From: Bacteroidota bacterium
GTDB taxonomy: Bacteria > Bacteroidota > Ignavibacteria > UBA10030 > UBA6906
Assembly: GCA_020846365.1 (NCBI GenBank)
Contig: JADLEA010000415.1
Span: forward strand, 1 to 36,361
DNA: 36,361 nt
Direction of reading: 5' to 3'
This document shows, piece after piece, positions 11,214 to 34,522 of this stretch. Each line of letters opens with the position of its first letter. Within the stretch, counting starts at the first letter, position 1. Below the pieces are notes generated by a model. The model worked only from the letters and a program-made list of their open reading frames with translations. It had not been told where the DNA came from and ran no database searches. The position numbers and the translations under genes were made by a program.

Positions 11214-14042
11214 ATGGAGCGGATCGCCTTGCGAATATTCCTCATCGTCGCCTTTCTTGCACTTGCGGAGGTGGCTCACGCCCAGTTTTTTTACTTCGGG
11301 CGGAACAAGGTGCAGTACACCGATTTTGAGTGGCATGTCCTCAAGACGGAGCACTTTGACATCTACTACTATCCGGAGATGAAGGACCTGGCGGAACGGG
11401 GTGCGCACTTCGCCGAAGAAGCGTACCGCGGTCTGGAAATCCGGTTCAACCACTCCCTGAACACGCGCGTCCCCCTGATCTTCTACAGCTCCCACCTGCA
11501 TTTCCAACAGACCAACACCATCGGCGGCTTCATCCCCGAAGGCGTCGGTGGGTTCTTCGAATTCCTGAAAGGCCGCGTGGTCATCCCCTCGGACGGGTCC
11601 ACGTCCCAGTTCCGCCATGTAATCCGGCACGAGCTGGTCCATGTCTTCATGCACAGCAAGATGAGCCGCGTCCTGACCGACCACCGCAAGACGCAGGATC
11701 GCTATCCGCCGCTCTGGTTCGTGGAAGGCCTCGCCGAGTACTGGTCGACAGACTGGGACTCACAGGCGGAAATGGTCATGAGAGACGCCGTGCTGAGCGA
11801 CCTCATTGTCGGACTGGAGGACATGTCGCGCATCTACGGCTCCTTCCTCATGTACAAGGCCGGCCAGCATGTCCTGACGTATATCGGCAAACACTACGGA
11901 GAGGAGAAGATCCTCCTCCTGATGGAAAACTTCTGGAAAGAATCATCGTTCAACGATGTGCTGAAGATCACCATCGGCAAAACCTTCAAGGAGTTCGACG
12001 AAGAATGGCTGTATAGTCTGAAGAAGGCATACTACCCCCTCCTCGCGTCCAAAGACCAGCCCAGCAAGGTGACGAAGAAAGTCGCCGTCGAGGGATTCAA
12101 CACGAAGCCCGTGGTGTTCGAACACGACACGACACGGGAGGTCTACTTCATCGGCAACCGCACCGGCTATACCGGTATCTACCGGAAGCTCCTCGGCAAA
12201 GAGACGCTTGAAGACGAAGTGGAGAATGTCGTGGAAGGGGAACAAACAGACGAGTTCGAGGCCTTCCACCCGTTCAGAAGCCGCATCGATATCTCGCGTG
12301 AAGGGAGACTCGCCTTCGTTACCAAGAGCGGGGAGAACGATGCCCTGCACGTGTATGATGTCCTGACCGACGAGCTTGTGACCACGTTCCGCTTCCGCGA
12401 TCTGGTCAGCATCGGTTCCACATCCTGGGCGCCCGACGGGAAGCGGGTGGCGTTCTCCGCGATCAACAAGGCCGGACAGAATGACCTCTACATCCTGGAC
12501 ACTGAAACGCGCGCGCTGCAACCGTTGACCAACGATTACTACGACGACCGGGATCCGGCATGGTCACCGGACGGTCATCGCATTGCGTTCAGTTCCGACC
12601 GGACGCCGTACGGGGCGCAGGGGAAATACAATCTCTTTCTGTTTGACCTTCGCGACAACGATATCCGGTATCTTACGTGCGGTCCGCACAGCGACGCCTC
12701 CCCTGCCTGGTCACACGACGGCTCCCTGCTCGCCTTCACGTCGGATGTGGACGGCACCAACAACATCTGGGTCACGGACCCGAACAAGATGTTCCCGGGC
12801 GGAACGCGCACGATGACGCGCATCACCTCCTTCGTCACATCGGCGTTTGATCCGGCCTGGACATCCACCGGAGACCTCGTGTTCGCCACCTTCGAGCGAT
12901 TCAGCTTCCGCCTGCAGTCGCTCAAGGACGTTCGCAGCGTCTCCGATACATCCACCACCGTCCGGATCATGGATCTGTATGCCCGGGCCCGGCCCTGGGA
13001 AGCCAGGACCATCTCCGGAGAATCCGAGATCGAACACCTCAAATACCGCGGGGACTACAGCCTGGACATCGCCCAGAGCGCAATATCCACGGACCCGGTG
13101 TTCGGCACTTCGGGGGGCGCGTTTGTCGCATTGAGCGACCTTCTGGGAAACGATCAGTATTACTTCCTCCTCTATAATACGGCCCAGTCCCAGGACGAGC
13201 TCCTCTCCAGCTTCAACATCGCCATTTCACGGATTTCCCTGAGCCAGCGGACGAGCTACGCCTATGGAATCTACCGCTTCACGGGGAGAAGGTACGACCT
13301 GACATCAAAGGATGAGTTCTACTATGAGCGGGTGTTCGGAGGGTATTTTGCGCTCAGCTATCCCCTGACAAAATTCCAGCGCGTGGAAACCGGCATCAGC
13401 CTCAGCAACTCCAACCGCGAGGTGGATGGGGCCATCGAACAGCGCAAGGCCCTGCTGCTCTCCAACTCGATCGCCCTGACCCACGACAATTCCCTCTGGG
13501 GGCCCAGCGGACCGCTGGACGGAAGCCGGTTCAACTTGACGCTCGCCTACACCTCGGACATCCAGTATTCGAACGTCAACTACTTTTCGATCATCGCAGA
13601 CTACCGGCATTATACACGGCTTTCGCAGCGGAGCGCATTCGCTTCCCGGTTCTGGATCTTCTACAATCACGGCAAGGAGTCGCGACGTTTTGTCATGGGC
13701 GGGAGTTGGGACCTGCGCGGCTTCGAGAGATGGAGCGTCCGCGGGGAGAAGCTCTGGTTGACGAGTCATGAGCTGCGCTTCCCGTTTATCGACGAGCTCG
13801 CCATCCGCTTCCCGGTCTTCGGCCTGAGCTTCTTCTCCATCCGGGGTGCATTGTTCTTTGACGCGGGAGGAGCGTGGGATCGCACGTATGTCGAGACCCT
13901 CGGGAGCACAGGGGGCGGTCTGCGCATGAACCTGGGAGGATTCCTGGTCATTCGTTATGACGTCGGCAAACGCATCGAAGAGAACTTCTCCAGGTTCCAG
14001 AACGGGCTGTTTCATCAGGTGTTCTTCGGATGGGATTTCTGA
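11214..14042 (+). CDS. outer-membrane fusion: gluzincin-like peptidase + TolB-like propeller + Omp85-type barrel
   Basis: I use the ATG at 11214 because it gives a standard signal peptide (RIALRIFLIVAFLALAEVAHA, cleavage before QFFYF); the track start at 11178 is a GTG upstream. The mature protein of about 920 residues has three parts. Residues about 25-270 resemble the peptidase MA family, with HELVH at 139-143 and GLAEYW holding a Glu at about 175, consistent with a zinc gluzincin. Residues about 390-570 carry four PD40-type repeats (SWAPDGKRVAFS, AWSPDGHRIAFSSD, AWSHDGSLLAFTSD, AWTSTGDLVFA). From about residue 660 the sequence is beta-barrel-like, with the Omp85 loop motif DLRGFE near 835 and a terminal phenylalanine (FFGWDF). 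POTRA domains are missing. It overlaps the next gene by one base. Family members are known in Bacteroidota-like genomes, but the function is not established. Confidence 0.82.
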   Translation: MERIALRIFLIVAFLALAEVAHAQFFYFGRNKVQYTDFEWHVLKTEHFDIYYYPEMKDLAERGAHFAEEAYRGLEIRFNHSLNTRVPLIFYSSHLHFQQTNTIGGFIPEGVGGFFEFLKGRVVIPSDGSTSQFRHVIRHELVHVFMHSKMSRVLTDHRKTQDRYPPLWFVEGLAEYWSTDWDSQAEMVMRDAVLSDLIVGLEDMSRIYGSFLMYKAGQHVLTYIGKHYGEEKILLLMENFWKESSFNDVLKITIGKTFKEFDEEWLYSLKKAYYPLLASKDQPSKVTKKVAVEGFNTKPVVFEHDTTREVYFIGNRTGYTGIYRKLLGKETLEDEVENVVEGEQTDEFEAFHPFRSRIDISREGRLAFVTKSGENDALHVYDVLTDELVTTFRFRDLVSIGSTSWAPDGKRVAFSAINKAGQNDLYILDTETRALQPLTNDYYDDRDPAWSPDGHRIAFSSDRTPYGAQGKYNLFLFDLRDNDIRYLTCGPHSDASPAWSHDGSLLAFTSDVDGTNNIWVTDPNKMFPGGTRTMTRITSFVTSAFDPAWTSTGDLVFATFERFSFRLQSLKDVRSVSDTSTTVRIMDLYARARPWEARTISGESEIEHLKYRGDYSLDIAQSAISTDPVFGTSGGAFVALSDLLGNDQYYFLLYNTAQSQDELLSSFNIAISRISLSQRTSYAYGIYRFTGRRYDLTSKDEFYYERVFGGYFALSYPLTKFQRVETGISLSNSNREVDGAIEQRKALLLSNSIALTHDNSLWGPSGPLDGSRFNLTLAYTSDIQYSNVNYFSIIADYRHYTRLSQRSAFASRFWIFYNHGKESRRFVMGGSWDLRGFERWSVRGEKLWLTSHELRFPFIDELAIRFPVFGLSFFSIRGALFFDAGGAWDRTYVETLGSTGGGLRMNLGGFLVIRYDVGKRIEENFSRFQNGLFHQVFFGWDF

Positions 14043-15322
14043 TGCGGACCACCCACGAATTCCCGGGAGGAATACCGGGCCGTCGTTGTGCAGAAAATGA
14101 CCTGCATGCCGGCCGGCACCTGTCACCCGGACCGGCGAAAGACCTCGCGCACTTCCTCCGTGTGTTGCCCGCAATCGTCGCACGTTCCCTCTGTGGAGGT
14201 CTCCTCCTCCTGTCGGCCGAAGGATGCAGCGGGCTCCGCCTTCCCGAGGCCCCGCGGGATTCTGCATTCAGCATCCGGACCTTTGCCACAAACACGATGC
14301 GCAACAACGAAGTGCCAGCCATCCCCGGTCCTCCGCTCGTGCTTGATTGGGAAGAAGACCTGACGGCGGGGTTCGGTGAGGGTGCCCCCCTGCTCGTGGA
14401 CAGCGTGCTCTTTCTCGGCAACCTCCGGGGCGAACTGTATGCCCTGAACGCCGGGACAGGCAAGCGGTTCGGATGGGTGACCCTCGGCGGAGCGATTCAC
14501 GGAGCGCCGGTTCTTGTCGGCAACACCGCGATCGTTCCTCTCGCTGGATCGCGGGAGTCGCTTGTGGCATATGATTTCCTCGAGGGCAGGATCCTGTGGC
14601 GTCAGGAACTCGGCGACATTCATGTCTCCCCGCTCCTCCTGGGTTCTCGCGTCTTCGTCGCGAATACCATCGGGGTGGTGCATTGTGTCTCCCTGGACGA
14701 CGGCGCGCCTGTCTGGAAATTCGAGCTCCCTGAGAACAAGGCCCTGAAGGGAATCCGTTCATCTCCTGCCGGGTTTGGCCGCTCGGTGTTCTTCGGCGCG
14801 GATGATGGGTTCCTGTACCATCTCAATGCCGCCACCGGCAGCCAGGAGTGGCGGTTCGACGCAGGCGCGTCGATCCAGGCAACGCCGGTGTTGCACGAAG
14901 GGCGCGTGTACATCGGCACGCTTGCAGGCAAACTCTTCGCCATTGCCGATTCAACAGGCAGACCTGAGTGGTCGTGTGATGTGGGCGGATCCATCTATGG
15001 CACTGCCCTCGTCGATTCTGCCCTTGTGATCGTCGGAACCACCGCCGGCGACGTCATTGGATTGCAGCGCTTGACGGGGAAGATCATGTGGAAAACGGAA
15101 TTGCGTGCCCCGGTCAATTCCGGAATCCTCGGGGCCGGCGAGTTCGTGTATGCCGGGACCCTCAGGAAAGACCTCGTCGCAATCCGTCGAACGACAGGCG
15201 AAATCGTCTGGCGCGGCACAACAGGCGGGAGAGTGAAGACAACCCCAACTGCTGGCCTGGGCCGCTTGTTTGTTGCCGGGGATAATCGGGTCGTGCAGGC
15301 CTTCAAGGAGGAAAAGAGATGA
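14042..15322 (+). CDS. PQQ-type beta-propeller protein, probably a lipoprotein (BamB-like fold)
   Basis: The protein has seven or eight propeller blades of the PQQ/BamB type, each with a pattern such as LRGELYALNAGTGKR, FLYHLNAATGSQEWRFDAG, GKLFAIADSTGRPEW and GDVIGLQRLTGKIMW. Near residue 53 lies a hydrophobic run with a possible lipobox (LLLLSAEGCSG), so it may be anchored in a membrane. The start is uncertain. The ATG at 14042 overlaps the previous stop (TGATG) but leaves about 40 residues before the hydrophobic run; the in-frame GTG at 14162 would give a normal signal peptide but has no visible ribosome-binding site. No PQQ-enzyme active-site residues are evident, so a scaffold role is more likely. 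Its stop overlaps the start of the PEGA gene (ATGA). Confidence 0.75.
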   Translation: MRTTHEFPGGIPGRRCAENDLHAGRHLSPGPAKDLAHFLRVLPAIVARSLCGGLLLLSAEGCSGLRLPEAPRDSAFSIRTFATNTMRNNEVPAIPGPPLVLDWEEDLTAGFGEGAPLLVDSVLFLGNLRGELYALNAGTGKRFGWVTLGGAIHGAPVLVGNTAIVPLAGSRESLVAYDFLEGRILWRQELGDIHVSPLLLGSRVFVANTIGVVHCVSLDDGAPVWKFELPENKALKGIRSSPAGFGRSVFFGADDGFLYHLNAATGSQEWRFDAGASIQATPVLHEGRVYIGTLAGKLFAIADSTGRPEWSCDVGGSIYGTALVDSALVIVGTTAGDVIGLQRLTGKIMWKTELRAPVNSGILGAGEFVYAGTLRKDLVAIRRTTGEIVWRGTTGGRVKTTPTAGLGRLFVAGDNRVVQAFKEEKR

Positions 15323-16236
15323 TCCGGACACCTGGACTTTCGGCGTGTGTCGCGTTCATGCTCCTCCTTGGACAGTCCGCATTCGCGTGGCCGGGAGCAT
15401 CCGGCACAACGACGTTGTCAGACCCAATCTCAATCACCGATACGGCCCCGTCTGCCAATACCACCTCGATCGCCGATACGTCTTCGGTCGCTGACACTAC
15501 CGCTGCGGCAGACACAACCACAACCGCACGACGATCGAGTATAATCATTACTACGGATCTTGACAGCGCGCTCGTTTTCCTGGATTCTGTCTATGTGGGC
15601 CGGACCCCGTTTTCCACGGACACGCTCCAGCCCGGAACCCACGTTCTGAGAATCAGCCACCCCCATGTGGAGAGTTGGCACGGAGGGATTGTCACGGACA
15701 CGCTGCGATTGGCACCCGGCGAATCCAGAACCGTGCGGTACAACGTCCGCACCTACATGTCGGTGACCAGCCTGCCTCCCGGTGCCGATGTGTACGTGGA
15801 TGATTCGCTGGCGGGCCGGACACCGTTTCTTGTACTTCCATCCCTCCTGCGGGAGGATCTGCGCCTTACAGTGAAAAAAGAAGGGTTTGAGCCGGCGGGC
15901 ATGAGTGCCGCCACCCTTTCCGAGAGCGTATTCCAGGTTGCTCTCAGGGGCGGCTGGCAGAATCTGCCGGTTGAAGATTCCCCGTATTTTGAAGCACGGC
16001 CCGGTCTGTCTTCGCGCCGGATCGGCCTCTACCTTAGTGGCGGATTGTCGGTGCTTGCTGGCGCCGCCGCGGCCTACTGCAAAATTGCAGCAGACAACAG
16101 GCAAGCGGCGTACCTTGAGAGCGGAAACGCCGCGTTGCTTACCGAAAGGAGGAATCTCGACACCTGGGCCGGAATCTCCTTTGCGGTAACGCAGATCGGT
16201 TTGGCTGTCTTCTCCTACCTTCTCATCTCGGAATGA
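15319..16236 (+). CDS. secreted/membrane PEGA-domain protein with Thr/Ser/Asp-rich linker
   Basis: A signal peptide (ending GQSAFA, before WPG) is followed by a low-complexity linker of short degenerate repeats (ITDTAPSANT, IADTSSVADTTAAADTTTT; residues about 34-72). Two PEGA-like domains follow, at about 75-135 (SALVFLDSVYVGRTPFST, LQPGTHVLRISH) and 140-210 (PPGADVYVDDSLAGRTPFLV, LRLTVKKEGFEPAG). PEGA domains are often found on surface or envelope proteins. The last 70 residues hold two hydrophobic segments (LYLSGGLSVLAGAAAAY, WAGISFAVTQIGLAVFSYLL) that probably anchor it in the inner membrane, with the linker and PEGA part outside the cytoplasm. It overlaps the PQQ-propeller gene by 4 bases (ATGA). 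It is the last gene of the three-gene unit; a new promoter lies 28 bases downstream. Confidence 0.78.
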   Translation: MIRTPGLSACVAFMLLLGQSAFAWPGASGTTTLSDPISITDTAPSANTTSIADTSSVADTTAAADTTTTARRSSIIITTDLDSALVFLDSVYVGRTPFSTDTLQPGTHVLRISHPHVESWHGGIVTDTLRLAPGESRTVRYNVRTYMSVTSLPPGADVYVDDSLAGRTPFLVLPSLLREDLRLTVKKEGFEPAGMSAATLSESVFQVALRGGWQNLPVEDSPYFEARPGLSSRRIGLYLSGGLSVLAGAAAAYCKIAADNRQAAYLESGNAALLTERRNLDTWAGISFAVTQIGLAVFSYLLISE

Positions 16237-17767: not shown

Positions 17768-20035
17768 ATGAAGAGCGGGTGGTATGTCTGTGCAGTTGTT
17801 CTCCTCGGTCCGATGTGCGCGTTGAGCGCGACCGGAACGTGGCGTAACTATACCTCCATGCAGGAGGTTCGATCCATCGTCCGCGACGGCAACGCCGTTT
17901 GGGCAGCAACCTCCGGCGGACTCTTCCGATGGACATCCTCTCCCGACCAGTATCTCCTCTTGACAAACGCCGAGGGGCTGCGAACGATCGACCTTACGGC
18001 CGTCAATATCGATCAACAGGGGAATGTCTGGTCAGGAAGCGCCAACGGCACCCTGCATGTGTACACACCGGCGACCGGTACCGTGAGATTGATTCTGGAT
18101 ATCGCGGCCTCGAATCAGACCAACAAACGCGTCAACGCGATCAGCATCGCGGGAGACACTTCCCTTTTCTGCACGGAATTCGGTCTGAGCCTTTTCCATA
18201 TCGGGCGCTTTGAATTCGGCGACACTTATTCCCGTTTCGGGAATATCCCCGCGGGGACACGCGTTGCCGTCACTTCCGCGCTTCTCCACGGCGGGTACGT
18301 GTGGGCATGTATTACCGACGGACAGTCCCTCCACCGGATCGCTTTCGCTTCGCTCTCCCAACCAAACCTTCTCCCTCCGGAAGCATGGACGCTTCAAACC
18401 GTCGGCGGACCCGGCACTGTACCGAAGGTGCTGGCAGTGTTCGCGGGAAAGTTATATGCCGGCACTTCCTCAGGGTTGTTTTTTGAGGAGGGCGGCTCGT
18501 GGTCCCAGGTTGCGTCGCTCAGCGGCAGGAATATCACCGCGCTCTCGACTTCGGCCACTCAGCTTCTCGTCACAACCATCGATAGAGCTGTGCTCTCCGT
18601 TACCGCCGGAGACGTCGTCACACCCCTTGGCTCCACCTTGCCGGAGGTCCCAACGGCACTCGCCATCAGCGAGAATGGCAATCCCGTCGTGGGAACCTCG
18701 ACCACGGGTTTGCTGGCATGGGATACCGCGTGGACTGTGCACGTGCCGAATGGACCAAACTCCAACCAGTTCCTGAACCTCCTCGTGGACGCCGACGGGA
18801 TACTCTGGTGCGCGTCCGGTGATGTCTCTGGTCGCGGCTTGTACCGGTATGACGGCACCACGTGGACATCGTTCACAACCGCAAACAGCCCGCTCCCGGC
18901 AAACGAGGTCTACCGGGTGTCCAGCGGGGCCGACGGTACCGTGTGGGCTTCCACCTATGGGCGTGGCGCTGTGGCCATCCCACGGGGAAGCGCACGCATC
19001 GATTCCCAGAATGTCTTCGGCAAGAATGTCGGCATGCCGGGTCTCGCTGCGGACCCCAACTATGTGGTCGTAAGCAATGTGGCCTCGGACAGCCGCGGAA
19101 ATGCATGGATGAGCGTGGTCCTGGCAGGCGACAGAAACGTGTTCTCGGTCCGGAGGTCCGACGGCAGCTGGAGACACTTCCCCGCTATCATCAATGGCAT
19201 CAAGATGGGCCAATTGATGGAACGGGTGGTGGACCGCTGTCTGGCCGTTGACGCCTTTGACAATGTCTGGGCCACCGTGCGCGACGCCGGGTACAGGGGG
19301 ATACTGTGCCTCGGCAATGGGGGATCGATCGACAGTACCGCCGCTTTCCACCTGGGTGCTTCCAACGGGCTTCCCAGCAGCGAGGTGAAGACGATCCTGG
19401 TGGACAGCGATAATGACATCTGGATAGGAACGGATCGCGGCATAGGCATCATTCTGGAACCGTCGAACCCGACGCGCACGGGAAGCATCGCCGCCTACAA
19501 ACCGCTGAACGGCCTCGTGATCAACACCATTGCCGTCGATCCTCTCAATCAGAAATGGGTCGGGACGACGGAGGGGGTGATTCTCCTGTCCCCCGACGGC
19601 ACGCAGACGCTCGCGTCCTATACGGTGGAAAGCACGGACGGAAGGCTCATGGACAACGATGTCAAGTCCATCAGCGTAGACGCGAAAACCGGCACCGTGT
19701 ATTTCGGCACCATGTCGGGTCTGGCAAGTCTGACCACGCCGGCTGCTGCGCCGCGGGCGTCGTTCGACGGTCTGAGCGTGTTTCCGAATCCGTTCCTGGT
19801 GCCATCCTCCGAACCGCTTACGGTCAGCGGCCTTGTGGCGGAATCACAACTGAAGATTCTCACCGTCGACGGCAAGGTCATACGCAACATTTCAACGCCG
19901 GGGGGATTGGTCGGAACATGGGACGGCAAGGATGCCGAAGGGGAATTTGTGGCCTCGGGTGTGTATCTCATCGTGGCATTTGCACAGGACGGCAGCGCGG
20001 TTGCCACCGGGAAAGTCGCACTCATCAAACGATAA
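17768..20035 (+). CDS. PorZ-like two-propeller surface protein with type IX secretion C-terminal domain
   Basis: The 755-residue protein starts with a signal peptide (YVCAVVLLGPMCALSA) and is then built of beta-propeller blades of the two-component-regulator type: VWAATSGGLFRW, VWSGSANGTLHVY, VWASTYGRGAVAIP, IWIGTDRGIGII, KWVGTTEGVILLS, VYFGTMSGLASL. The last 90 residues form an Ig-like type IX secretion/FlgD-like domain: VFPNPF, a short linker, LKILTVDGKVIR, GTWDGKDAEGE, VASGVYLIVAF and KVALIKR at the end. This order matches PorZ, a surface component of the type IX secretion sortase complex, or a related T9SS cargo protein. AGGA lies 8 bases before the ATG. Sequence alone cannot separate PorZ from a generic propeller cargo; absence of a histidine kinase part rules out a hybrid sensor. 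Confidence 0.8.
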   Translation: MKSGWYVCAVVLLGPMCALSATGTWRNYTSMQEVRSIVRDGNAVWAATSGGLFRWTSSPDQYLLLTNAEGLRTIDLTAVNIDQQGNVWSGSANGTLHVYTPATGTVRLILDIAASNQTNKRVNAISIAGDTSLFCTEFGLSLFHIGRFEFGDTYSRFGNIPAGTRVAVTSALLHGGYVWACITDGQSLHRIAFASLSQPNLLPPEAWTLQTVGGPGTVPKVLAVFAGKLYAGTSSGLFFEEGGSWSQVASLSGRNITALSTSATQLLVTTIDRAVLSVTAGDVVTPLGSTLPEVPTALAISENGNPVVGTSTTGLLAWDTAWTVHVPNGPNSNQFLNLLVDADGILWCASGDVSGRGLYRYDGTTWTSFTTANSPLPANEVYRVSSGADGTVWASTYGRGAVAIPRGSARIDSQNVFGKNVGMPGLAADPNYVVVSNVASDSRGNAWMSVVLAGDRNVFSVRRSDGSWRHFPAIINGIKMGQLMERVVDRCLAVDAFDNVWATVRDAGYRGILCLGNGGSIDSTAAFHLGASNGLPSSEVKTILVDSDNDIWIGTDRGIGIILEPSNPTRTGSIAAYKPLNGLVINTIAVDPLNQKWVGTTEGVILLSPDGTQTLASYTVESTDGRLMDNDVKSISVDAKTGTVYFGTMSGLASLTTPAAAPRASFDGLSVFPNPFLVPSSEPLTVSGLVAESQLKILTVDGKVIRNISTPGGLVGTWDGKDAEGEFVASGVYLIVAFAQDGSAVATGKVALIKR

Positions 20036-26061: not shown

Positions 26062-27312
26062 ATGAACCATAAGCGCAGAGTGGTAGTCACCGGTATGGGT
26101 GTGTTAACGCCCATCGGGCTCAATGTCGAGGATTTCTGGAATGCGATGATGCGCGGCACGAGCGGTGCCGCGCCAATCACGTATTTCGACACCGCCGCAT
26201 ACGGCACCCGCTTCGGCTGCGAACTGAAGGGGTTCAAGGCGACGGACTTCCTTGACCGCAAGGCCTCGCAACGGATGGATCCATTCTCCCAGTATGCGTT
26301 GATCTCTTCGGACATGGCGGTTCGCGATGCGGGTCTCTCGGCAAAGGATACCGACCCCGACCGCATTGGTGTGATCTTCGGTTCGGGCATCGGGGGCATG
26401 ATCACGTACGACGCACAGTTCACCAACTACATGCAGGGCGGTCCGCGGCGCATCAGTCCGTTTTTCATCCCGATGCTCATCCCCGATATTGCGGCAGGGA
26501 ACATCTCCATCAAGCACGGCTTCAAGGGCCCGAACTACGCCACCGTGTCGGCGTGTGCGACGGCCTCCCACGCTATCGGGGATGCCTACCGCATCGTGCA
26601 GTACGGCGATGCCGACGCCATGGTGTGCGGCGGATCCGAAGCGCCGATCACGCCCATGGGACTGGGCGGGTTCGACAACATGCGGGCCCTGTCCGCGCGG
26701 AACGACGCCCCGGAAAAAGCCAGCCGTCCGTTTGACCTCCATCGCGACGGCTTTGTCATCGGCGAGGGCGGAGGGGCGATCATCCTGGAAGAACTCGAGT
26801 TTGCCCTCAAACGGGGTGCCCGCATCTACTGCGAGATGTCCGGCATCGGGTTTACCGCCGACGCCCATCATATCACTGCGCCTCCGGAAGGCGGCGAGGG
26901 GGCCGTACGTTCTATGCGCCGCGCTCTCAAGGACGCAGGCATCACACCGGACATGGTCGACTATGTCAATGCTCACGGGACGTCCACGCCGCTCAATGAC
27001 GCGAGCGAGACGGGCGCCATCAAGACGGCGTTCGGAGAGCATGCCCGCATCATGAGCATCAGCTCGACGAAATCCATGACCGGCCATCTCCTCGGCGCGG
27101 CCGGAGCAGTCGAGGCGGTCGCCAGCATCCTCGCGGTGAAGAACGGCATTATTCCGCCCACCATCAACTATGAGGTCCCGGATCCGGCGTGCGATCTCAA
27201 CTATACGCCCAATACGCCGGTGAAACGGGATATCCGCTACGCCATGAGCAACACCTTTGGCTTCGGCGGGCACAACGCAACGCTGTTATTCAAGAAATAT
27301 TCAACGGACTGA
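26062..27312 (+). CDS. fabF: 3-oxoacyl-ACP synthase II
   Basis: FabF extends acyl-ACP with malonyl-ACP. The catalytic Cys is residue 165 in [16 protein letters not shown]; the two histidines lie in [14 protein letters not shown] and [28 protein letters not shown] at the N-terminus and [14 protein letters not shown] at the C-terminus are standard. Length is 416 residues, normal. The minus-strand frame of 389 residues (26104-27273) in the ORF track is its shadow. Confidence 0.98.
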
Positions 27313-27319
27313 CCACGGC

Positions 27320-28099
27320 ATGGTGCGGGTTAAACAATTCATAAGGGACCTGTTTGCCCGCTCCCGCTCAGCCGATGAGGAGGCCTGTGAAGACCTCCCG
27401 GCGTCCCTTGACAACACCACCCTGCAAAACCTCGAGCACGTCCTGGATTACCGCGTCCGCAGGAAAGACCTGTTCATCCAGGCGCTCCTCCACCGCTCGT
27501 TTCCTCAAAGCACGTCCCAACCCAACCTCTCGAATGAGCGGCTCGAATTCCTGGGCGATTCTGTGTTAAACCTCATCGTCGGAGAGTATCTGTACCGCAC
27601 GTACCCCCGGGCGCCCGAGGGGGATCTCACGAAATTCCGCTCCCGCCTTGTCAACCGCAAGGCCCTTGCCGTCTACGGGAAAAACCTCCGTCTTTCCACG
27701 TTCATTCTGATGAGCCCCAGCGCCGCGCAGTCCGTCGGAAAGGGATACGAGACCATCATTTCGGATACCTTCGAGGCGCTCGTCGCCGCGATCTATCTGG
27801 ACAGCGGGTTTGACGCCGCCCGCCAGTTCGTCGAACGCCAGGTCGCCGCCGCATTCTCCCACGGCACCATTGCCACCTCGGACGAAAACTACAAGAGCCG
27901 GCTCCTGGAATACGCGCAATCGCAGGGCTTCGGCGTTCCGCGCTATACGATCATCAAGGAAGAGGGGCCTGATCACGACCGTACCTTTACGGTCGAAGTT
28001 TTTCTCAAGAGCGAGCGCCAGGGCGAGGGTTCCGGCAAGAACAAGAAGGAAGCCGAGCAGGCTGCAGCCAAACAAGCGCTCGACCACCTTCACGCATAA
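27320..28099 (+). CDS. rnc: ribonuclease III
   Basis: This endonuclease cuts double-stranded RNA, including rRNA precursors. I use the ATG at 27320, 7 bases after the fabF stop; the track start at 27257 is inside fabF. The RNase III signature NERLEFLGDSVLNLIVGEYLY is followed by SDTFEALVAAIYLDSGF with the second catalytic acidic site. The C-terminal double-stranded-RNA-binding domain is seen from about residue 190 (NYKSRLLEYAQSQGFGVPRY to GSGKNKKEAEQAAAKQAL). The protein is 259 residues. Its placement after acpP-fabF is common in bacteria. Confidence 0.97.
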   Translation: MVRVKQFIRDLFARSRSADEEACEDLPASLDNTTLQNLEHVLDYRVRRKDLFIQALLHRSFPQSTSQPNLSNERLEFLGDSVLNLIVGEYLYRTYPRAPEGDLTKFRSRLVNRKALAVYGKNLRLSTFILMSPSAAQSVGKGYETIISDTFEALVAAIYLDSGFDAARQFVERQVAAAFSHGTIATSDENYKSRLLEYAQSQGFGVPRYTIIKEEGPDHDRTFTVEVFLKSERQGEGSGKNKKEAEQAAAKQALDHLHA

Positions 28100-28106
28100 G
28101 ACGCCC

Positions 28107-29459
28107 ATGCCCCCCCCTCACTCCTCCGACGCCTGCCGGATTCTGCTCGTTTGTGTTGCGTCCTTGGGGTGCGCGATGCTTGGCGCATTCGGCCATGCGC
28201 AAGACACTCCGGAAGGACTCTTTCCCTCCCTGGGCACCGTTGACACCGTGATCATCGTCGGGAATGCCTCTACCAAAGAGTATGTGATCCTGAATGAGAT
28301 GAGCATCAGGCCGGGGACCTCCATTACGCTTCCTCTCCTGGAGTATGACCGCGCCCGTATCTACAGTCTGGGGCTTTTCACCTCGGTGGATCTTTCCCTG
28401 GATACTTTGAGCGCGCTCCGGTCGCTGATTGTTCTTGTTAGTGAGCGCTGGCACTATTTCCCCGTACCGGTCATCGGATTCCGGGACGGAGACCCGAAGA
28501 AAGTGTACTATGGCGCGGGGTTCATGCATAACAATTTCCAGGGGCGCAACCAGAAGCTGTTTACCTCTCTTGTCCTCGGCTACAATCCTTCCGCGCAGAT
28601 TTCCTTCCGGGAACCCCTGATCGATCCGGAGCACCGTCTTTCCTTCTCCACGGGGGCGGCCTTCAGCCGCGTGCGGAACAAGAGCGAGATCGAGGCGGAG
28701 GTCACCGGAGATTTTGACGAGCTCCATTATGATTTCGCCGCGGGCATCGGCAAACGGCTCACCCTCTTCGAAAGCGTGAACCTCAGTCTTACCTATCAGG
28801 TGGTGGAGGTCTCCTCTTACCGCCCGCTGCGAACGGTGTCGAGCAGCGGTATTGACCGGTTCTTTTCGGTCACGGCATCCTACGGCTATGACTCGCGCGA
28901 TCTCCGGGAGTATCCGTCCCGCGGCCTCTCACTCGGGGCCTCCCTTACCAAACACGGACTCGGCACTTCCGATGTCAACTTCGCCCGCTTCGGCTCGGAC
29001 ATCCGCGGGTATCTTCCGCTCAACTCCCTGTTCACGCTTGCGGGGAGAGTGACCGGGAGCATTGTCTCCGGCGGGACCGTGCCGACGTACGCGCGCATGT
29101 ACTTCGGCTACGGGGAACGTATCCGCGGGTACTTCAAGTCCGTGCTGGAGGGAGAGAACCTTCTCGGTTCCAGCATCGAGTTTCGCTTCCTGCTTCTTCC
29201 TGTACGGGTATTCCGGCTACCAACGACTCTGCTCCCGGACGAGTTCACGGTGTGGCAGTTCGGCATCAGCCTTGCCGTTTTCGCCGATGCGGGAACAACT
29301 TGGTTTCGCGGCGAGCCGCTTGCAGTGGACCGTTTCCTCTCGGGATATGGAGGAGGTATCCGGTTTCTCCTCCCGTACGGGATCGTCGCCCGCACGGAGT
29401 ATGCGCTCAACAACTACGGCAAAGGACAGTTCATTCTTGACTTCCGAACGCCCTTCTGA
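28107..29459 (+). CDS. BamA/TamA-like outer-membrane barrel with a single POTRA domain
   Basis: The ATG at 28107 follows the rnc stop by 7 bases and gives a signal peptide (RILLVCVASLGCAMLGAFGHA, cleavage before QDT). One POTRA-like domain follows (VDTVIIVGNASTKEYVILNEMSIRPGT, LGLFTSVDLSLD; residues about 45-110). The rest, from about 120, looks like an Omp85-type barrel: YGAGFMHNNFQGRNQ, ITASYGYDSRDL-like strands, the loop motif ERIRGYFKS near residue 350 and a terminal Phe (ILDFRTPF). Length is 450 residues, with one POTRA where BamA has five and TamA three. It could insert or export outer-membrane material, or be a related Bacteroidota surface-antigen protein. It overlaps rsmE by 23 bases. 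Confidence 0.82.
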   Translation: MPPPHSSDACRILLVCVASLGCAMLGAFGHAQDTPEGLFPSLGTVDTVIIVGNASTKEYVILNEMSIRPGTSITLPLLEYDRARIYSLGLFTSVDLSLDTLSALRSLIVLVSERWHYFPVPVIGFRDGDPKKVYYGAGFMHNNFQGRNQKLFTSLVLGYNPSAQISFREPLIDPEHRLSFSTGAAFSRVRNKSEIEAEVTGDFDELHYDFAAGIGKRLTLFESVNLSLTYQVVEVSSYRPLRTVSSSGIDRFFSVTASYGYDSRDLREYPSRGLSLGASLTKHGLGTSDVNFARFGSDIRGYLPLNSLFTLAGRVTGSIVSGGTVPTYARMYFGYGERIRGYFKSVLEGENLLGSSIEFRFLLLPVRVFRLPTTLLPDEFTVWQFGISLAVFADAGTTWFRGEPLAVDRFLSGYGGGIRFLLPYGIVARTEYALNNYGKGQFILDFRTPF

Positions 29460-33400: not shown

Positions 33401-34522
33401 CTACTGTGTACGACGGGAGATCTCTTGCTGCAGGAGGGGAGAAAGTTGGGGTAGGCCGGGATCCTGTTTCATGAGCCGGAGGTAGGTCATGAAGAACACG
33501 TTGGGACCTTTGCGAATGGTTTCCACCAGTGCAACGCGGCCGAGCGTTTGATCGATCTGCCGGGCGATGATCATGCCGGTGATGGAGCCATAGCTCTCCC
33601 AGTATCCGGAGGTGTTGGCATTGCGAAGGATGTCGGCGGCGCGGGGAGGAGCTAGACGGGGCGAGAGCAATTCTGCGGCAGCGTTGTTGAACTGCTCAAA
33701 CGCTTGCTGCGCCCGCTGCAATCCATCCTGCGGCAGACGCCCCTGACTCCGCTGGATCAGCGAGAGGTAGTAGGCAACGCCCTCATTGTGCGCGAGATCC
33801 ATCAACTCGTCGAGCGGTTGGAGCGGTGAAGCATAATACGCCTGCCATTCCGGCGTCGTGGTCTTGTATTCGCCGAAGGCCGCATGAAACACCTCGTGCG
33901 CGACGACGCTCAGTAGGCCGATGAACCGTTCATCCGTGGAAGACCCATAGTGCACGGCCTTCGCCAGGTTCACCACGATCACCTGCTCTCCCTCCTGCTC
34001 TCCTGCGGGGCGCGGCACGTGGCCTTCCCATGTGACACGAACCACGAAGGCATCGATATTCTGGTGTCCGAAAGCCACGACGTACATGGGGATCCGTGCG
34101 TTCACCCGCGCATCGCCCGGAAAGAGTTGCTCCACCGTACTCACCACGCGCTGCCCGAAATTGCGGCGGCGGAGTTCCTGTAGCAGCTCACCAATCGGGG
34201 CGGCATTTGCTCGCGCCTCTCTCATCCGAAACAGGTCTTCCCCGTCGCTCTGGTTGAATTTGGCCGCCGCCAGACTTTGTTCAAGGTCGGCTGTCTGAAG
34301 CTGCCGACGTGCGAGCATCCCGGTAATGGCCAGTGCGAGTTGGCTTCCCCTGAGTGAGGCGATTTCCGCGGGACGGCCCGACAGCCCGGTGTAGAGCTCT
34401 ATGGATTTGTCGGCCGACGCATAGTTCACATCCAGGGCCAGCGAAAACTGACCGTGCGGCTGGGCAGCCACCCGGGCGGCGCACAGCAGCAGGACGAGCG
34501 CGCATACCCACGCGGATCTCAT
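33401..34522 (-). CDS. secreted HExxH putative zinc protease (DUF5700-like)
   Basis: A signal peptide (RSAWVCALVLLLCAARVAA, cleavage before QPHG) is followed by about 350 residues. The zinc motif is HEVFH in SVVAHEVFHAAFGEYK near residue 210, with a likely third ligand Glu about 30 residues later in LAHNEGVAYYLSL. This arrangement resembles the DUF5700 family of putative zinc proteases; the match is from memory, so treat it as tentative. The protein should be in the periplasm or exported. It follows the SpoIIE-type phosphatase gene by one base, so the two are probably co-translated. The substrate is unknown. Confidence 0.72.
   Translation of the reverse strand: MRSAWVCALVLLLCAARVAAQPHGQFSLALDVNYASADKSIELYTGLSGRPAEIASLRGSQLALAITGMLARRQLQTADLEQSLAAAKFNQSDGEDLFRMREARANAAPIGELLQELRRRNFGQRVVSTVEQLFPGDARVNARIPMYVVAFGHQNIDAFVVRVTWEGHVPRPAGEQEGEQVIVVNLAKAVHYGSSTDERFIGLLSVVAHEVFHAAFGEYKTTTPEWQAYYASPLQPLDELMDLAHNEGVAYYLSLIQRSQGRLPQDGLQRAQQAFEQFNNAAAELLSPRLAPPRAADILRNANTSGYWESYGSITGMIIARQIDQTLGRVALVETIRKGPNVFFMTYLRLMKQDPGLPQLSPLLQQEISRRTQ

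What the first reader, a model, noticed from the sequence alone, without database searches (positions are those of the whole stretch)
11214..14042. Peptidase-propeller-barrel fusion: zinc-peptidase and TolB-like domains attached to an Omp85-type barrel lacking POTRA domains
The sequence shows an N-terminal HELVH...GLAEYW gluzincin pair, four PD40 repeats and a C-terminal barrel with an RGF motif and terminal Phe. Omp85 proteins normally carry POTRA domains where this one has a peptidase and a propeller. The order suggests a surface or periplasmic device in which a protease is tethered to its own outer-membrane pore. The function of such fusions is not known to me.
Basis: partly seen in the sequence, partly recalled or inferred. 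Interest (0 to 1): 0.68.

Follow-up and report, generated by a model that had tools for sequence, protein, structure and literature searches.

The report
Protease-propeller-barrel outer-membrane machine
This gene encodes one long protein that joins a zinc protease, a TolB-like propeller and a BamA-type outer-membrane barrel, and it is usually partnered with a BamB-like lipoprotein, which suggests that a whole group of bacteria carries an extra, unstudied machine for building or policing its outer membrane.

Summary
The 942-aa ORF at 11214-14042 (+) carries a signal peptide, a gluzincin-type zinc-peptidase domain, a six-bladed TolB-like propeller and a 16-stranded Omp85 barrel, with no POTRA. 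The zinc motif (H139, E140, H143, E171) is invariant in 69 of 69 orthologues. It is not an oddity of one genome: an orthologue or paralogue occurs in 41 of 41 near relatives, 44 of 61 genomes across the host's phylum and 41 of 41 from the phylum of a Gemmatimonadota member. The new point is context. The next gene, overlapping the stop codon, is a BamB-like propeller lipoprotein, followed by a PEGA-domain protein. The BamB-like neighbour is seen in 58 non-redundant loci from several phyla. Where the barrel gene has moved away, all nine Ignavibacteria genomes checked keep the BamB-like gene elsewhere. In four Gemmatimonadota loci an LptE-family gene follows instead. Best reading: a periplasm-facing machine for outer-membrane assembly or proteolytic quality control. 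A propeller-Omp85 class without POTRAs was published in 2014 (PMC4104836); the protease and the BamB-like partner are not described in the papers I could search. Function is inferred.

The parts
11214..14042 (+). Peptidase-propeller-Omp85 protein, 942 aa
11214..11282 (+). Sec-type signal peptide, residues 1-23 (MERIALRIFLIVAFLALAEVAHA|Q)
   Evidence: read from the sequence; N-terminal helix in the model; no signal-peptide predictor was run
11286..12089 (+). Gluzincin-type zinc-peptidase domain, residues 25-292
   Evidence: Peptidase_MA_2 at cut-off; fold matches to M1, M9 and M61 peptidases; alignment A2 of 43 members
11628..11642 (+). HELVH zinc motif, residues 139-143
   Evidence: H139, E140, L141, H143 invariant in 69 of 69
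11724..11738 (+). EGLAE, residues 171-175; E171 is the probable third zinc ligand, 28 residues after H143
   Evidence: E171 invariant 69/69, E175 68/69; spacing 28-30 in those relatives of the A and B types where a simple pattern found it
12075..12974 (+). Six-bladed TolB-like propeller, residues 288-587
   Evidence: PD40; partial TolB family score; TolB fold match; 24 strands
13059..14039 (+). 16-stranded Omp85 barrel, residues 616-942
   Evidence: PF01103; BamA barrel fold match; strand count
13713..13724 (+). LRGF motif in the loop between barrel strands 11 and 12, residues 834-837
   Evidence: L834, R835, G836 invariant or all but one of 69
14030..15322 (+). BamB-like PQQ-propeller lipoprotein with lipobox-like LSAEGC, overlapping the upstream stop codon; exact start uncertain (14030, 14042 or later)
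   Evidence: PF13360 151 bits; BamB structures matched by profile; TIGR03300 144 bits, below its cut-off of 285; adjacency in 58 loci
15319..16236 (+). PEGA-domain protein with signal sequence and hydrophobic C-terminal part, overlapping the previous stop by 4 bases; probable third gene of the module
   Evidence: PF08308 59.5 bits; homologues follow the BamB-like gene widely

Best explanation
The protein is anchored in the outer membrane by an Omp85 barrel, and its propeller and zinc protease hang in the periplasm where POTRA domains would normally be. The TolB-like propeller, with the separately encoded BamB-like lipoprotein as a second propeller, most likely holds incoming or stalled envelope proteins next to the barrel seam. 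The protease then cuts those that fail, or matures those that pass. The PEGA protein is a likely further partner. It would work like BepA, BamB and BamA combined, as an accessory outer-membrane assembly and quality-control machine beside the canonical BamA that the same genome also appears to encode. Shown here: domain anatomy, invariant zinc motif, 16-stranded barrel model, absence of POTRA, conserved gene module and breadth of occurrence. Inferred: periplasmic location of the soluble domains, physical partnership with the lipoprotein, proteolytic activity, and the role in assembly or quality control.
For: Zinc motif under strict constraint. Omp85 barrel with the LRG loop motif and terminal aromatic. 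BamB-like lipoprotein immediately downstream in 58 non-redundant loci, including Calditrichota, KSB1 and distant families of the host's phylum; a possible start codon at or before the stop in 37 of the 42 in which a lipobox was located. Where adjacency is lost in one Ignavibacteria clade, 9 of 9 genomes checked keep a full-length BamB-like gene elsewhere, with a PEGA-like gene beside it in all nine, weakly in L146. Control: the two paralogues in this genome have no BamB-like neighbour on their contigs, and only one other strong PQQ_2 protein exists in the genome, on contig C216. In 4 of 7 Gemmatimonadota loci an LptE-family gene (PF04390 over cut-off) lies two genes downstream. E. coli BepA is a periplasmic zinc peptidase that promotes assembly of, or degrades, LptD, probably at the BAM complex (PMC8423444). 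Enzyme domains in front of an Omp85 barrel can stay periplasmic (PlpD, PMC11116518). What reads as canonical BamA is separate, split over contig ends C25 and C424 (by eye from sequence and gene order).
Against: No substrate, location or activity has been measured. Peptidase_MA_2 is only at its curated cut-off. The downstream protein does not reach the NCBI cut-off for true BamB, so the link to BAM is by resemblance. The BamB-like neighbour is absent in the Gemmatimonadota, Zixibacteria and WOR-3 loci examined, where only weaker PQQ hits occur, so the partner is not universal. The gene is missing from 17 of 61 genomes drawn across the phylum at 1e-20 and the A type from 4 of 41 close relatives, so it is not needed in every lineage. 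Without POTRAs, substrate delivery cannot work as in BamA.
Confidence: 0.52

Rival explanations
1. Barrel-anchored periplasmic protease: the barrel is mainly an anchor or channel, and the propeller and protease degrade or trim peptides or regulatory proteins in the periplasm, unrelated to outer-membrane protein assembly.
For: Catalytic motif invariant; protease fold related to peptide-cleaving M1 and M61 enzymes; no POTRA; three divergent copies per genome would suit substrate diversification.
Against: The Omp85 features (16 strands, LRG loop) are retained under constraint, which a passive anchor would not need; the BamB-like and LptE-family neighbours point to membrane assembly.
Confidence: 0.22
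2. Type Vd-like secretion: the barrel exports its own N-terminal protease and propeller to the cell surface.
Against: For PlpD the enzyme domain was shown to stay in the periplasm (PMC11116518); a folded six-bladed propeller sits between protease and barrel; the conserved partner is a BamB-like lipoprotein.
Confidence: 0.1
3. The peptidase domain is a non-catalytic scaffold, as in some pseudo-proteases, and the protein is only an assembly platform.
For: A more distant Bacteroidia relative with the N-terminal part lacks HExxH altogether (L104).
Against: Within the family the zinc-binding histidines, the catalytic Glu and the probable Glu ligand are invariant from Ignavibacteria to WOR-3.
Confidence: 0.08

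Closest known systems
WD40-Omp85 subfamily (Heinz and Lithgow 2014, PMC4104836)
   Same: Omp85 barrel without POTRA, preceded by a propeller whose nearest relative is TolB; the authors likened it to a BamA-BamB fusion
   Different: That paper's main text never uses the word peptidase and mentions no zinc-peptidase domain before the propeller, and no operon with a BamB-like lipoprotein; its supplementary tables could not be read here
Patatin-Omp85, PlpD (PMC11116518)
   Same: Hydrolase domain at the N-terminus of an Omp85 barrel, facing the periplasm
   Different: PlpD has a patatin lipase and one POTRA; here a zinc peptidase and a propeller, no POTRA
Metallo-Omp85 (Heinz and Lithgow 2014)
   Same: Called a metalloprotease-Omp85 in that paper
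   Different: Defined by PF00149, which from my own knowledge is the calcineurin-like phosphoesterase family; no PF00149 hit here
BepA (M48 zinc metallopeptidase of E. coli, PMC8423444)
   Same: Zinc peptidase acting at an Omp85 machine; proposed functional analogy
   Different: BepA is a separate soluble M48 protein; no M48 hit here, and the protease is covalently joined to the barrel
BamB (compared with the downstream gene)
   Same: PQQ-type propeller lipoprotein; its profile matches BamB structures at E 3e-44
   Different: Below the NCBI equivalog cut-off (144 against 285 bits), and encoded with a non-BamA Omp85

Membership tests
Omp85 superfamily | Omp85 barrel profile above curated cut-off | tested here: met
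   PF01103 48.5 bits, cut-off 24
Omp85 superfamily | 16-stranded barrel matching BamA or TamA | tested here: met
   16 strands counted in 616-940 of the model; Foldseek to BamA barrels E 3e-9, TM 0.62 by target
Omp85 superfamily | Conserved RGF/Y motif in the loop between strands 11 and 12 | tested here: met
   L834-R835-G836 conserved in 69 sequences
Omp85 superfamily | At least one POTRA domain (typical, but not required in the classification of PMC4104836) | tested here: not met
   No POTRA hit; in the model the propeller runs almost directly into the barrel
WD40-Omp85 subfamily | Propeller resembling TolB in place of POTRA, before an Omp85 barrel | tested here: met
WD40-Omp85 subfamily | Clusters with the published subfamily sequences | not testable with these tools
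   Supplementary sequence tables of PMC4104836 are not readable here
Metallo-Omp85 subfamily | PF00149 domain | tested here: not met
   No hit
Patatin-Omp85 (PlpD) | Patatin domain plus POTRA | tested here: not met
   No hit for either
Gluzincin zinc peptidases (clan MA, Peptidase_MA_2) | HExxH and a downstream Glu ligand in successive helices of a gluzincin fold | tested here: met
   Invariant residues, helices 130-156 and 167-178, M1/M9/M61 fold matches; Pfam exactly at cut-off; ligand distances not measured
Gluzincin zinc peptidases (clan MA, Peptidase_MA_2) | Measured zinc binding and proteolysis | not testable with these tools
   Needs purified protein
BepA / M48 | M48 peptidase domain | tested here: not met
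   No M48 hit among families listed up to E 1
BamB (gene at 14030-15322) | NCBI equivalog model TIGR03300 above cut-off | tested here: not met
   144.4 bits against 285.2
BamB (gene at 14030-15322) | PQQ_2/BamB propeller profile and lipoprotein signal | tested here: met
   PF13360 151 bits; lipobox located by pattern in 42 relatives; LSAEGC in the window by eye, a less typical lipobox

The most novel reading that the evidence does not exclude
Many bacteria of the Bacteroidota-Gemmatimonadota-Calditrichota group carry a second, self-contained outer-membrane assembly machine in which protease, chaperone-like propeller and insertase barrel are one polypeptide working with a BamB-like lipoprotein, giving a built-in fold-or-destroy decision at the barrel.
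Probability: 0.3. Interest if true: 0.8.

Novelty: new variant of a known kind. Interest (0 to 1): 0.6.

Why it matters
If the reading holds, a large part of the bacterial tree has an outer-membrane assembly or quality-control machine, unlike any described in E. coli, with the protease fused to the barrel rather than recruited. The recent Bacteroidota BAM structure paper mentions no BamB, propeller or peptidase (PMC12611786). The module would allow a clear test of how an Omp85 barrel works without POTRA domains, and whether assembly and degradation are decided on one molecule.

Tried and rejected
Taking the 'Metallo-Omp85' class as the match was rejected because that class is defined by PF00149, which is absent here. 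Filing the downstream gene as true BamB was rejected on its curated cut-off. A start codon 12 bases before the stop appears in most relatives, but it partly follows from the conserved C-terminal codons (GWDF-stop), so overlap alone is not taken as proof of translational coupling. The FastTree tree has long branches; it was used only to see that loss of adjacency in Ignavibacteria is mainly one clade of 20. Searches for papers combining Omp85 with this peptidase or with PD40 gave nothing beyond PMC4104836. Some references to loci failed for frame reasons and were redone; 'of' with locus ids failed; one search was a mis-typed look-up. The identity of the first gene after the barrel in Gemmatimonadota is unresolved: no Pfam hit, though it looks like a lipoprotein.

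Full report
Observation. The ORF at 11214-14042 (+) is 942 residues with a Sec-type signal peptide. Pfam gives Peptidase_MA_2 (136-269, at its cut-off), PD40, and Omp85 (677-920, twice its cut-off), and no POTRA. NCBIfam gives partial TolB and BamA scores far below their equivalog cut-offs, as expected for single domains of a fusion.

Structure. AlphaFold2 on 43 aligned members gave pLDDT 84.3 and pTM 0.80. I count 24 propeller strands (six blades) at 288-587 and 16 barrel strands at 616-940, with LRGF in the loop between strands 11 and 12. Foldseek places the propeller with TolB and the barrel with BamA. The peptidase domain alone (pLDDT 83.5) matches M1 aminopeptidases, clostridial collagenase peptidase domains and M61; by sequence profile the nearest solved proteins are bacterial collagenases at E 0.009. 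HELVH lies in helix 130-156 and EGLAE in helix 167-178, the gluzincin order. Distances between the ligands were not measured.

Conservation. In 69 aligned orthologues H139, E140, H143 and E171 never vary; the 43-row alignment, which reaches down to 29 percent identity and includes Gemmatimonadota, Zixibacteria and WOR-3 members, agrees. All the further Gemmatimonadota members have HExxH; the downstream Glu motif was found there by a narrow pattern in only some. The zinc site is therefore under constraint, which argues for catalysis.

Breadth. All 41 genomes searched near the window have at least one member; 37 have the full orthologue (my count). Over the host's phylum 44 of 61 have a match at 1e-20; 41 of 41 genomes drawn from the phylum of a Gemmatimonadota member have one. 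Named carriers include Ignavibacteria, Calditrichota, KSB1, Gemmatimonadota, Zixibacteria and WOR-3. The window's genome has two further paralogues with the same three parts, 1100 and 1072 residues, both with HExxH; Peptidase_MA_2 is below its cut-off in the second. It also has what reads as canonical BamA, beside uppS and an Skp/LpxD-like region at contig ends. Phyla outside this group were not systematically searched.

Gene context. The next ORF (14030-15322) is a PQQ-propeller lipoprotein related to BamB, then a PEGA-domain protein (15319-16236). A profile of the BamB-like protein finds it directly downstream in 58 non-redundant loci across Ignavibacteria, Calditrichota, KSB1 and distant families of the host's phylum. 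In one Ignavibacteria clade of 20 sequences it is not adjacent; in 9 of 9 such genomes tested a full-length BamB-like gene lies elsewhere, with a PEGA-like gene beside it in all nine, weakly in one. The two paralogues lack such a neighbour on their contigs. In the Gemmatimonadota loci the BamB-like gene is absent; instead 4 of 7 have an unnamed probable lipoprotein gene and then an LptE-family gene. Two independent neighbourhoods thus point to outer-membrane assembly.

Mechanism. I propose a periplasm-facing accessory assembly and quality-control machine: the barrel offers an Omp85 seam, the two propellers hold clients, and the protease removes or trims them. The precedents are BepA, which promotes or degrades LptD, probably at BAM (PMC8423444), BamB as a possible scaffold (PMC3359395), and PlpD, whose enzyme domain stays periplasmic (PMC11116518). 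No step of the function is shown here.

Known or new. Heinz and Lithgow 2014 (PMC4104836) already named a WD40-Omp85 class without POTRAs and likened it to BamA plus BamB. This protein fits that description. Their main text does not mention a zinc peptidase in it. Papers in the held library add nothing, but most subscription journals are missing from that library. I therefore rate it a new variant of a known kind: the class is known, while the protease domain and the conserved BamB-like/PEGA module appear unreported.

Noticed in passing
window 27810-29459 (+): A second Omp85 protein in the same window, with one POTRA (PF07244) and an Omp85 barrel; the ORF just upstream (27257-28099) reads like ribonuclease III (by eye, not searched).
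   Followed up: no
window 17768-20035 (+): Large propeller protein with a just-below-threshold match to PorZ of the type IX secretion system and a FlgD-like C-terminal domain.
   Followed up: no
window 33401-34522 (-): DUF5700 putative zinc-dependent peptidase with a signal-peptide-like start.
   Followed up: no
L105:4395-7694 (-) and L106:7278-10493 (+), same genome: Two further three-part paralogues (39 percent identity over 6-468, and more distant); the second has a wider HExxH-to-Glu spacing of 56.
   Followed up: partly
L104:5971-9381 (+): Bacteroidia relative of 1137 aa that shares the N-terminal part but has no HExxH and no Pfam hit, possibly a degenerate version.
   Followed up: partly
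L166, L170, L171, L172: In Gemmatimonadota the gene is followed by an unnamed probable lipoprotein and an LptE-family gene.
   Followed up: partly
PMC4104836, section 10: The paper calls PF00149 a metalloprotease domain; from my own knowledge PF00149 is the calcineurin-like phosphoesterase family, so its 'Metallo' class is probably not a protease class.
   Followed up: no
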